A stretch of DNA of 64,000 nucleotides from Sphingobacteriaceae bacterium (lineage in GTDB: Bacteria > Bacteroidota > Bacteroidia > Sphingobacteriales > Sphingobacteriaceae): contig JAQSWM010000001.1 of NCBI GenBank assembly GCA_029266635.1, positions 186,001 through 250,000 of the forward strand, given 5' to 3'. Below the pieces are notes generated by a model. The model had not been told where the DNA came from. It was given only the letters and a program-made list of their open reading frames with translations, and searched no databases. Below are positions 59,685-62,559 of the stretch, one piece after another. Within the stretch, counting starts at the first letter, position 1; every line of letters begins with the position of its first letter. The position numbers and the translations under genes were made by a program.

Positions 59685-59861
59685 CTAGTCCCAGCTTGCC
59701 GCTTCTTTTGAAGAAGAGGTTCCCTGCAACCTATTTACATCATCCTGATGTTGTTTGATAACCTGTGCTTTTTCAGGAGCGTTTACAACTTGTTCTTTGG
59801 AATTTGCTGCGAAACCAACTGCAACTAAAACTACAGCGGCTGCTAATATTAACTTTTTCAT
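59685..59861 (-). CDS. Small secreted protein ending in WD (array member 6)
   Basis: 58 residues. The N-terminus [20 protein letters not shown] is a secretory signal without the lipobox Cys found in its five neighbours. The remainder is short and hydrophilic ('KAQVIKQHQDDVNRLQGTSSS') and ends in 'AASWD', echoing the 'GNWD' end of the array. It is the last member on the minus strand, 29 bases after the next. I infer a diverged relative of the lipopeptides. Function unknown. Confidence 0.6.
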   Translation of the reverse strand: MKKLILAAAVVLVAVGFAANSKEQVVNAPEKAQVIKQHQDDVNRLQGTSSSKEAASWD

Positions 59862-59890
59862 GTTTTCTGTTTTTAAGTATGATGTAAAAT

Positions 59891-60103
59891 TTATTCTATA
59901 TCCCAGTTGCCGTTGTCTTTCTGGTCGCCCACTACTTCCGGGTTGTCATTAGTTGGCTGATCAGCTACTACGTCCCAATTGCCGTTATCTTTTTGATCGG
60001 CTACTATTTTGCTTTTTACTGATGGAGTAGCTACTTCTTCTTTTTTGCAAGCGGTGATGCTCAATGTTGCTATTGCGATGATGGCTAAGATTAATTTTTT
60101 CAT
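59891..60103 (-). CDS. Small lipoprotein with duplicated DQKDNGNWD motif (array member 5)
   Basis: 70 residues. Lipoprotein signal MKKLILAIIAIATLSITAC, acceptor Cys19 followed by KKEE, a charge pattern like the Bacteroidota surface-export signal for lipoproteins. The body reads 'ATPSVKSKIVADQKDNGNWD', then 'VVADQPTNDNPEVVG', then a second 'DQKDNGNWD' and a final IE. The middle segment looks like a decayed third copy. It resembles a precursor with repeated core peptides. No domain family recognised. Confidence 0.7.
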   Translation of the reverse strand: MKKLILAIIAIATLSITACKKEEVATPSVKSKIVADQKDNGNWDVVADQPTNDNPEVVGDQKDNGNWDIE

Positions 60104-60136
60104 GCGATGTGGATTTAAAGCTTTAGTTGATGATGA

Positions 60137-60349
60137 TTAATGAATGTCCCAGTTGCCGTTATCTTTCTGGTCGCCTACAAGGTTCAGAGTATCGCTAATT
60201 GTCTGATCAGCTACTACGTCCCAATTGCCGTTATCTTTTTGATCGGCTACTATTTTGCTTTTTACTGATGGGGTAGCTACTTCTTCTTTTTTGCAAGCAG
60301 TGATGCTCAATGTTGCTACCGCGATGATGGCTAAGATTATTTTTTTCAT
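60137..60349 (-). CDS. Small lipoprotein with duplicated DQKDNGNWD motif (array member 4)
   Basis: 70 residues, nearly identical to member 5 in signal and repeat layout: MKKIILAIIAVATLSITAC, KKEEVATPSVKSKIVA, 'DQKDNGNWD', spacer 'VVADQTISDTLNLVG', second 'DQKDNGNWD', ending IH. The variable spacer between conserved repeats suggests that the repeat, not the spacer, is under constraint. It lies 33 bases before member 5. Confidence 0.7.
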   Translation of the reverse strand: MKKIILAIIAVATLSITACKKEEVATPSVKSKIVADQKDNGNWDVVADQTISDTLNLVGDQKDNGNWDIH

Positions 60350-60384
60350 GGTTATTGATTTTTATGTTAGTGAATGATTGTTGG

Positions 60385-60519
60385 TTAGTCCCAGTTGCCG
60401 TTATCTTTCTGATCAGCGACAATTTTGCTCTTTACAAATGGCGTGGCTACTTCCTCTTTTTTGCAGGAGGTGATGCTCAATGTTGCTACTGCGATGACGG
60501 CTAAGATTAATTTTTTCAT
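60385..60519 (-). CDS. Mini-lipoprotein ending in DNGNWD (array member 3)
   Basis: 44 residues, too short for most gene callers. Signal MKKLILAVIAVATLSITSC (Cys19), then a 26-residue mature peptide beginning C-KKEE and ending 'KIVADQKDNGNWD', with a single motif. By my count it differs at only 5 of 135 coding bases from member 2, which begins 170 bases upstream. It would be a surface or periplasmic lipopeptide. Expressed with its neighbours from the promoter at 60993-61022. Confidence 0.65.
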   Translation of the reverse strand: MKKLILAVIAVATLSITSCKKEEVATPFVKSKIVADQKDNGNWD

Positions 60520-60554
60520 GGTTATTGATTTCTATGTTAGTGAATGATTGTTGG

Positions 60555-60689
60555 TTAGTCCCAGTTGCCGTTATCTTTCTGATCAGCGACAATTTTGCTC
60601 TTTACAGATGGCGTGGCTGTTTCCTCTTTTTTGCAGGATGTAATGCTCAATGTTGCTACTGCGATGACGGCTAAGATTAATTTTTTCAT
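60555..60689 (-). CDS. Mini-lipoprotein ending in DNGNWD (array member 2)
   Basis: 44 residues. Same signal as member 3; the mature part starts C-KKEETATPSVKSK and ends 'IVADQKDNGNWD'. Together with member 3 it forms a 170-bp direct tandem duplication that includes the intergenic spacer (one difference seen there). Five base differences across the coding units are concentrated before the conserved C-terminus. Confidence 0.65.
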   Translation of the reverse strand: MKKLILAVIAVATLSITSCKKEETATPSVKSKIVADQKDNGNWD

Positions 60690-60726
60690 GGTTATTGAAT
60701 TTTGAGTTTTGATAGATAATTGTTGG

Positions 60727-60861
60727 TTAGTCCCAGTTCCCGTTGTCTTTCTGATCGGCTACGGTTTTGCTTTTTAGTGATGGAGTTGCGGCTTCTTCCT
60801 TTTTGCAGGAGGTAATGCTCAATGTTGCTACTGCGACCACGGCTAAGATTAATTTTTTCAT
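60727..60861 (-). CDS. Mini-lipoprotein ending in DNGNWD (array member 1, promoter-proximal)
   Basis: 44 residues from the ATG at 60859-60861, where the lipoprotein signal MKKLILAVVAVATLSITSC begins; the longer open frame upstream has no such signal. The mature peptide starts C-KKEEAATPSLKSK and ends 'TVADQKDNGNWD'. It is first in the array, about 130 bases downstream of the promoter -7 box, and divergent from the TPR-DHp gene. Confidence 0.68.
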   Translation of the reverse strand: MKKLILAVVAVATLSITSCKKEEAATPSLKSKTVADQKDNGNWD

Positions 60862-60992: not shown

Positions 60993-61022
60993 CAAAGTTA
61001 TATATTTAACGTCTCCCTACAA
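60993..61022 (-). promoter_or_regulatory. Promoter of the lipopeptide array
   Basis: On the minus strand TTG (61020-61022), a 19-base spacer, then TAACTTTG (60993-61000), an exact TAnnTTTG at a standard spacing. It predicts a leader of about 125 nt before array member 1. No other good promoter is visible between the members. Confidence 0.65.
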
Positions 61023-61089: not shown

Positions 61090-62559
61090 ATGAGCAAATT
61101 ACAAGCTTTTCTATTCCTTGCTTTCCCATCTTTTCTTCTGTATTTCAATTGTTATGGCACGAACTACAGCAGGTTAGCTGAGGTCAAGATCGACTCTAAT
61201 AGGGTAATAGAACTGAATACATTAGGTTACAAAGCCCGTTTAACTGATCCTTCACAAACTATCAAATATGCAGACCAGGCTCTCGAAATGGCCGAGGATA
61301 TATCATTTACGAACGGAGTTGCTGAAGCGTACCGGATAAAGGGAATAGGTTGGTATTATAAAAACCAAACCGGATTAGCCATTCAAAACTACTTAACTGC
61401 ACTTCAATACTTTACTCAAGCAAATAATGGTACAGGAATCGCCAGGGTAAACAACAATATCGGAGTTCTCTATCACGATGTAGACTATGATAAAGCTCTT
61501 GAATATTTCCAAAAGTCACTTGAATTGTCGGAAAGATATGGCATTCAGGACCTCACCTCAGGACTGTATCTAAATATAGGTACCATTTACCAAAAGAAAG
61601 GTAATTACAACACTGCGCTTAACTTCTTTAAAAAAAGCTACGACTCTTTCAATAGGCTTGGCATCGCTGTGGGTTCAATTCAGTGTCTCCAAAACATGAG
61701 CATTGTTTACAAAGACTTACGGCAGTTGGACAAAGCTGAATCTTATGCTATTCAGGCTATTCAAAAAGCAAAAGAAAACGACCTAAATATTACCGTAGCT
61801 GGCACTAACCTGACATTGAGCAAAATTTATATTATTGAAGGCAAATATGATCAGGCTGAACAAGCGATAAAAGAAGGTCGGGCGTACTCTGACCTTCTTA
61901 AAGATGAAAAGTTGCAATATGACTTTTTATACAATGCATACACTTTAGAAGAAAGCAGAAAGAACTACCACCAGGCACTACAATATTTAAAAGAGGTCTA
62001 CAAGACTGATAGCACCAATTATAATAACAATGTATCTACCCGCATTGCTCTGTTACAGGAACAGTCCAAGAGAAGGGCTCAGCAACAGGAAAATTTACTG
62101 TTGAAAGAAAAGCAGAAGTACAGCAAGATCCTAATTCTATCAACTATAGTCGGGTCGGCATTGCTGGTAATCGTCATAGTATTACTATTCAGAGACGTTC
62201 GCAAAAAAGCACTTAACAACAAACAACTTACGGCTTTGAACGCTGAAATCTCTTCGAAAAAAGAAGACCTTGATCGAATAAACCACAATTTAGAGGATAT
62301 CATAGACGAACGCACCAACGATCTTAGAATTAAAAACAAGAAGCTATCTGATTACTCCTCTCACCTCTCTCACCAAATCCGCGGACCGGTAGCTACGTTG
62401 AAAGGGCTTATGAACCTTGAACGCGAAGGGTTGATAGAAAAGGAGGAATTTGTGCAGCAAGTTGAAAAATGCGTGAACGACATTGATGATAAAATCCTAA
62501 ACATCAATGAAATGCTGCATGACCCAAAACAATACGGCTTCCGGAACGCTCAGCAATAA
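61090..62559 (+). CDS. TPR sensor with transmembrane helix and DHp domain, no kinase ATPase domain
   Basis: 489 residues. Signal peptide (~1-23); about six TPR repeats (residues ~40-310, e.g. 'NIGVLYHDVDYDKALEYFQKSLEL'); one membrane helix (~347-368, 'ILILSTIVGSALLVIVIVLLF'); a coiled coil (~370-415); then a DHp-like segment 'SHLSHQIRGPVATLKGLMNL' with His428 in the phospho-acceptor position. The chain stops about 60 residues later at a normal stop, with no HATPase_c domain and no sign of a frameshift. The TPRs should face the periplasm. Such a protein cannot phosphorylate itself, so it may take phosphate from another kinase or act by binding. Divergent from the lipopeptide array. Confidence 0.85.
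   Translation: MSKLQAFLFLAFPSFLLYFNCYGTNYSRLAEVKIDSNRVIELNTLGYKARLTDPSQTIKYADQALEMAEDISFTNGVAEAYRIKGIGWYYKNQTGLAIQNYLTALQYFTQANNGTGIARVNNNIGVLYHDVDYDKALEYFQKSLELSERYGIQDLTSGLYLNIGTIYQKKGNYNTALNFFKKSYDSFNRLGIAVGSIQCLQNMSIVYKDLRQLDKAESYAIQAIQKAKENDLNITVAGTNLTLSKIYIIEGKYDQAEQAIKEGRAYSDLLKDEKLQYDFLYNAYTLEESRKNYHQALQYLKEVYKTDSTNYNNNVSTRIALLQEQSKRRAQQQENLLLKEKQKYSKILILSTIVGSALLVIVIVLLFRDVRKKALNNKQLTALNAEISSKKEDLDRINHNLEDIIDERTNDLRIKNKKLSDYSSHLSHQIRGPVATLKGLMNLEREGLIEKEEFVQQVEKCVNDIDDKILNINEMLHDPKQYGFRNAQQ

What the first reader, a model, noticed from the sequence alone, without database searches (positions are those of the whole stretch)
59685..60861. Tandem array of six tiny secreted/lipoprotein precursors with a conserved DQKDNGNWD core
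Five lipoproteins of 44 or 70 residues and one 58-residue secreted relative lie head to tail. Signals are nearly invariant, the mature parts are only ~26 or ~52 residues, and the C-terminal motif DQKDNGNWD is kept in all five lipoproteins and duplicated in two. C-KKEE after the lipobox resembles a surface-export signal. The layout (constant export leader, short mature part, repeated conserved core, tandem copies) is like families of peptide signals, toxins or repeated-core peptide precursors. I know no described family with this motif. Function is inference.
Basis: partly seen in the sequence, partly recalled or inferred. Interest (0 to 1): 0.85.

Follow-up and report, generated by a model that had tools for sequence, protein, structure and literature searches.

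The report
Peptide signal precursors beside likely receptor
A row of tiny secreted proteins carrying copies of one short peptide sits back to back with a membrane sensor gene, and relatives of the pair recur in about 150 related bacteria, so this is probably an undescribed peptide signal and its receptor in a bacterial group where almost no peptide signals are known.

Summary
The array is real: five 44/70-aa lipoproteins plus a 58-aa secreted sibling, with seven exact DQKDNGNWD cores found nowhere else in the genome. Divergent from the array (61090-62559, +) is a 489-aa sensor: signal peptide, periplasmic TPR domain, one TM helix, and a HisKA domain with an invariant His but no ATPase domain. 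It is single-copy in nearly all genomes that have it.

I found orthologues in Sphingobacteriaceae. Of 153 distinct orthologue loci, 151 (152 after one manual correction) carry divergent short secreted precursors; 39 loci of other TPR kinases carry none. In relatives the same place encodes alpha-factor-like precursors with up to 37 head-to-tail cores. Cores end in Asp, differ between species, are near-identical within a genome, and change almost only at synonymous sites. The sensor domain diverges far faster than the output domain, and more so where cores differ. The predicted sensor fold matches peptide-binding TPRs, including Rap-Phr complexes.

Best reading: a peptide-ligand/TPR-receptor signalling pair. 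It resembles RRNPP quorum sensing but has a transmembrane receptor, in Bacteroidota. Binding, processing and output are inferred. No description was found in the open literature searched.

The parts
60727..60861 (-). precursor lipoprotein 1 (44 aa), nearest the sensor gene; core ADQKDNGNWD at the C terminus
60555..60689 (-). precursor lipoprotein 2 (44 aa), one core
60385..60519 (-). precursor lipoprotein 3 (44 aa), one core
60137..60349 (-). precursor lipoprotein 4 (70 aa), two cores
59891..60103 (-). precursor lipoprotein 5 (70 aa), two cores
59685..59861 (-). secreted sibling (58 aa, no lipobox), ends ..EAASWD; siblings of this type close 67 of the arrays and usually share the penultimate residue of the array's core
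61090..62559 (+). divergent sensor ('fam2', 489 aa): signal peptide, periplasmic TPR domain, TM helix, coiled coil, HisKA domain without HATPase
61192..61989 (+). TPR domain of the sensor (about residues 35-300), proposed peptide-binding part
   Evidence: Pfam TPR_12 7.8e-30; pLDDT mostly 93-98; Foldseek matches to LGN, KLC, Rap-Phr
62128..62190 (+). TM helix of the sensor (residues about 347-367)
   Evidence: hydrophobic stretch ILILSTIVGSALLVIVIVLLF in the translation
62347..62496 (+). HisKA-like domain; codon of invariant His428 at 62371-62373; no HATPase_c domain follows
60993..61022 (-). Bacteroidota-type promoter-like site (TTG-N19-TAACTTTG), ends 131 nt upstream of the first precursor ATG
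   Evidence: similar sites in 59 of 151 loci toward the precursors, 2.7 expected

Best explanation
The locus encodes a short peptide signal and its receptor. Several precursor genes (lipoproteins, plus a secreted sibling) carry one or more copies of a C-terminal core of about 8 residues, here QKDNGNWD, ending in Asp. The precursors are exported by the Sec route; the lipoproteins carry a surface-export-like CKKEE. The core, freed by proteolysis or exposed at the C terminus, binds the periplasmic TPR domain of the divergently encoded transmembrane sensor. The sensor passes the state on through its His-bearing dimerisation domain, which lacks its own ATPase and so must work with another kinase or act allosterically. 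Peptide and TPR domain diversify together, giving species-specific codes. Shown here: locus anatomy, selection on the core, strict pairing, co-divergence, predicted receptor fold. Inferred: processing, binding, downstream output, and whether the signal passes between cells or is self-sensed.
For: (1) Pairing: 151 of 153 distinct loci. Same-strand ORFs gave 2 of 162 and shuffles 5 of 162. (2) Specificity: 39 loci of other TPR kinases, inside and outside the family, have no divergent array, and full-length precursor matches are found only in genomes with the sensor. (3) The pair stays together in a quite different neighbourhood, without the usual M20 peptidase neighbour (L041). (4) Multi-core secreted precursors with up to 37 cores at the same position. 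(5) Core pN far below pS in 108 of 108 loci with at least 3 cores; in the window pN 0, pS 0.60. (6) Sibling and array share the penultimate residue in 53 of 67 loci; shuffled mean 29, maximum 39. (7) TPR identity 0.485 against 0.729 for the cytoplasmic part; at equal cytoplasmic identity TPR identity falls as cores differ (0.753 to 0.586 at 90% or more; partial r -0.30, lowest of 500 permutations -0.19). (8) Predicted TPR fold resembles LGN, KLC and Rap-Phr peptide complexes. (9) Promoter-like sites point to the precursors in 59 of 151 loci against 2.7 expected.
Against: No binding, peptide or expression data. TPR folds are generic scaffolds, so the Rap match is weak evidence by itself. The sensor lacks an ATPase domain and no conserved response regulator or target sits nearby. 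No dedicated protease or exporter travels with the pair. Some cores are followed by extra residues (for example GTWD-GRSDSLSNP) and some loci have degenerate cores (L151, L152). G232 has three sensor copies with no clear precursor seen. The covariation tests are only partly corrected for phylogeny, and the core definition biases pN downward.
Confidence: 0.72

Rival explanations
1. The precursors are ligands of the sensor, but as a cell-internal monitor of secretion or lipoprotein trafficking (in the manner of NlpE or RcsF), not as a signal between cells.
For: Many are lipoproteins with an export-type motif; the sensor's TPR domain is predicted to face the periplasm.
Against: Many relatives use only soluble multi-core precursors. 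Core sequence differs between species while receptor and core co-diverge, which a trafficking monitor would not need. Up to 37 cores per precursor looks like dosage of a released peptide.
Confidence: 0.2
2. The precursors are modified peptides or toxins (RiPP or bacteriocin), and the TPR protein regulates them or gives immunity.
For: Multi-core precursors occur in RiPPs; weak below-threshold hit to a chryseobasin-related RiPP model (20 bits, cut-off 40).
Against: The hit covers mainly the signal peptide. No maturase, transporter or immunity gene travels with the pair in any of the fully read neighbourhoods, including L041 where the pair has moved alone. Cores lack Cys in most species.
Confidence: 0.05
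3. The precursors are small surface or structural lipoproteins or repeat proteins, adjacent to the sensor only by regulation.
For: Lipoproteins are abundant in Bacteroidota, and repeat proteins can be structural (general knowledge).
Against: Strict one-to-one pairing, near-zero amino-acid change in the core, receptor-core co-divergence, and core repeats of only about 8-12 residues.
Confidence: 0.03

Closest known systems
RRNPP/RRNPPA quorum sensing (Rap-Phr, PlcR-PapR and relatives; Bacillota)
   Same: Adjacent genes for a small Sec-exported propeptide and a TPR receptor of 250-500 aa; short peptide codes; tandemly duplicated pheromones are known there (PMC11343458); fold match to Rap-Phr complexes.
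   Different: Here the receptor has a signal peptide and a TM helix, so its TPR is predicted to face the periplasm, with a HisKA output; the phylum is Bacteroidota; precursors are often lipoproteins, in arrays of up to 10 genes, or single proteins with up to 37 cores.
Yeast alpha-factor precursors
   Same: Secreted precursor with head-to-tail copies of one short core (resemblance of layout, from general knowledge).
   Different: No relation; a bacterial system with a TPR receptor instead of a GPCR.
FimS-type TPR sensor kinases of Bacteroidota (NF053520)
   Same: TPR sensor, TM helix, kinase-like cytoplasmic part; weak profile match (65 bits, cut-off 600).
   Different: No HATPase domain; paired with peptide precursors.
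Enterococcal lipoprotein-derived sex pheromones
   Same: Signal peptides born from lipoprotein precursors (general knowledge).
   Different: There the pheromone comes from the signal sequence; here the conserved core is the mature C-terminal part.

Membership tests
RRNPP quorum sensing | Propeptide is a small protein (10-100 aa; PMC10075063) | tested here: met
   44, 58 and 70 aa in the window; some relatives have 158-553 aa multi-core forms
RRNPP quorum sensing | Propeptide secreted by Sec and matured by peptidases | tested here: inconclusive
   Signal peptides are clear in sequence; maturation not testable
RRNPP quorum sensing | Receptor 250-500 aa with TPRs | tested here: met
   489 aa, TPR_12 7.8e-30; about 445-493 aa in relatives
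RRNPP quorum sensing | Propeptide and receptor genes directly adjacent | tested here: met
   151 of 153 distinct loci
RRNPP quorum sensing | Receptor is intracellular | tested here: not met
   N-terminal signal peptide and one TM helix after the TPRs, so the TPR domain is predicted to be periplasmic
RRNPP quorum sensing | Peptide binds the TPR domain | not testable with these tools
   Only fold resemblance
Two-component sensor histidine kinase | HisKA plus HATPase_c domains | tested here: not met
   HisKA only (E 0.0015, below Pfam cut-off) with invariant His428; no HATPase; all orthologues end about 60 aa after the His
PG1828 family lipoprotein (NF050142) | Score above curated cut-off of 50 bits | tested here: not met
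   At most 31.3 bits, mostly the signal-peptide region
Chryseobasin-related RiPP (NF050125) | Score above cut-off of 40 bits and a neighbouring maturase | tested here: not met
   At most 20 bits; no maturase conserved nearby

The most novel reading that the evidence does not exclude
A peptide-signalling system of Bacteroidota not described so far: multi-gene, multi-core peptide precursors read by a periplasmic TPR receptor that signals through an ATPase-less HisKA domain, with species-specific peptide codes co-evolving with the receptor across Mucilaginibacter and other Sphingobacteriaceae.
Probability: 0.6. Interest if true: 0.93.

Novelty: new variant of a known kind. Interest (0 to 1): 0.87.

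Why it matters
To my knowledge, peptide signals read by TPR receptors are established only in Bacillota and their mobile elements; the RRNPP survey cited here searched Firmicutes only, and I found no such system reported for Bacteroidota. If true, about 150 genomes already supply matched peptide-receptor pairs with readable codes, so specificity can be tested at once with synthetic 8- to 10-residue peptides. The sensor would also be a case of a kinase-like receptor without its ATPase. The pairs could serve as orthogonal signalling parts in environmental bacteria.

Tried and rejected
Pfam and NCBIfam searches of the precursors gave only signal-peptide matches below cut-offs. The first genome-contig scan, using the five near-identical lipoproteins alone, found nothing because the patterns were too narrow; the sensor alignment found 80 loci. 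Tested whether other TPR kinases carry such arrays: they do not. The M20 dipeptidase and the UvrD/MurA neighbours are constant chromosomal neighbours but not part of the unit, since the pair moves without them (L041). Searches for the motif and for such a system in open papers gave nothing. A peptide-receptor complex could not be modelled with the tools here.

Full report
Observation. The five lipoproteins are 84-91% identical to the first over their common part. Invariant stretches include the lipobox Cys with KKEE and the C-terminal ADQKDNGNWD. The core occurs seven times, all in this array; a degenerate 27-nt search of the 3.6-Mb genome, allowing three mismatches, gives only one further hit, with three mismatches. 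Compared codon by codon, core and CKKEE show synonymous change (pS 0.60) and no amino-acid change, while the spacer shows pN 0.097.

The neighbour. Divergent from the array is a 489-aa protein: signal peptide, about seven TPR helix pairs, one TM helix, a long helix, and a short HisKA-like domain with an invariant His (H428) but no ATPase domain. I call it the sensor. Nearly every genome that has it has one copy; G232 has three.

Relatives. Among 301 genomes of the family, 121 gave strong matches; most are the ~480-aa form, and the weakest are longer TPR kinases of some genomes, not orthologues. Named relatives are Mucilaginibacter, Daejeonella, Hufsiella, Arcticibacter, Pararcticibacter, Paradesertivirga and some Pedobacter, which are Sphingobacteriaceae or unclassified relatives. 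Outside the family, matches are more distant (E about 1e-62 or weaker) and none has precursors beside it. I read the DNA upstream of 162 sensor loci. 160 had at least one short ORF with signal peptide running away from the sensor; after removing duplicates, 151 of 153. The same scan on the other strand hit 2 of 162 and on shuffled DNA 5 of 162. Other TPR kinases: none of 39.

Precursors. Loci hold 1-10 precursors, 623 in all, of which at least 270 have a lipobox. Two types mix freely: lipoproteins with one to three cores, and secreted proteins with many cores head to tail, such as DKRTVGTGDLN x11 (L127), AKQDVGQADL x17 in one protein (L101), NKKDVGTAD x5-8 (L092) and 37 cores in one 490-aa protein (L094). 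The usual core is K-x-D/N/T-hydrophobic or T-G/A/S-T/S/Q/N-A/W/G/Y/F-D, and short precursors usually end exactly at this Asp. In 108 loci with three or more cores pN is below pS in all (median 0.037 against 0.636), with the caveat that cores were picked by similarity. The 58-aa sibling at the window array's end is itself a recurrent part: in 67 loci such a sibling closes the array, and its penultimate residue equals that of the array's core in 53, against 29 by shuffling. Several of the mismatches arise because my rule took a later Asp than the core's own.

Pairing is functional. In Pedobacter sp. BS3 (L041 and L160, same contig) the sensor, a lipoprotein and a sibling lie together with none of the usual neighbours. 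Full-length precursor matches occur in sensor-bearing genomes; in 30 genomes without the sensor the matches are signal peptides of larger lipoproteins. The TPR part averages 48.5% identity between orthologues, the cytoplasmic part 72.9%. At equal cytoplasmic identity, loci with different cores have more different TPR domains. This is the pattern expected if peptide and receptor specificity change together; the test controls for relatedness only through the cytoplasmic domain.

Structure. The predicted sensor (mean pLDDT 85.5; TPR mostly 93-98) matches solved TPR proteins that bind peptides: LGN, kinesin light chain, RapF, RapI, Rap-Phr complexes of phi3T and pLS20. TPR folds are generic, so this only shows that a peptide-binding groove is plausible.

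Expression. A Bacteroidota-type promoter-like site (TTG-N19-TAACTTTG) lies upstream of the window array; such a site alone is near chance in the window, but 59 of 151 loci have one pointing to the precursors against 2.7 expected, and only 1 points to the sensor.

Mechanism. Most likely the exported cores, released or displayed, are ligands of the TPR domain. The lipoprotein form has C-KKEE, which fits the published export signal C-X-K-(D/E)2-X (PMC5080379), so part of the peptide may be surface-displayed. How the signal is passed on inside the cell is unknown: the sensor keeps the His but lacks the ATPase.

Known systems. The system meets three of the five published RRNPP criteria outright (size, TPR receptor of 250-500 aa, adjacency; PMC10075063). 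Sec secretion is met by sequence, but maturation could not be tested. It fails the defining intracellular location of the receptor, so I do not file it as RRNPP; it works like one. Tandem pheromones in one propeptide are known in Bacillota (PMC11343458). No paper in the open library describes this motif or such a system in Bacteroidota; subscription journals were not searched.

Noticed in passing
L331 605-8723 (G070): A four-gene block (1092, 330, 797 and 479 aa; the 330-aa product looks like a metallo-beta-lactamase-fold protein) lies directly beside a part of the array that has been separated from its sensor; the arrays seem to be sites of rearrangement or insertion.
   Followed up: no
L334 6856-7014 (G136): A lone 52-aa lipoprotein with a CRGCSGGWD core lies upstream of a LytS-type histidine kinase and a LytTR response regulator, not beside the TPR sensor: possibly a second signalling branch or the missing output.
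   Followed up: partly
L241 898-3794; L248 892-2643: Daejeonella-type genomes hold the closest paralogue of the sensor, a full-length TPR kinase; in L241 it has His_kinase and HATPase_c domains beside a LytTR response regulator, which may hint at the ancestral output.
   Followed up: partly
L335 110-3212; L336 46-1503 (G232): Three sensor copies in one genome, two in tandem, with no clear precursor; a 31-aa ORF with VNGYWD lies 320 nt upstream (L335 3531-3626).
   Followed up: partly
L084-L086, L091, L095: Daejeonella relatives carry cysteine-bearing cores (CRGCGDWD, CTGCGAGWD) followed by variable tails, unlike the Cys-free cores elsewhere.
   Followed up: no
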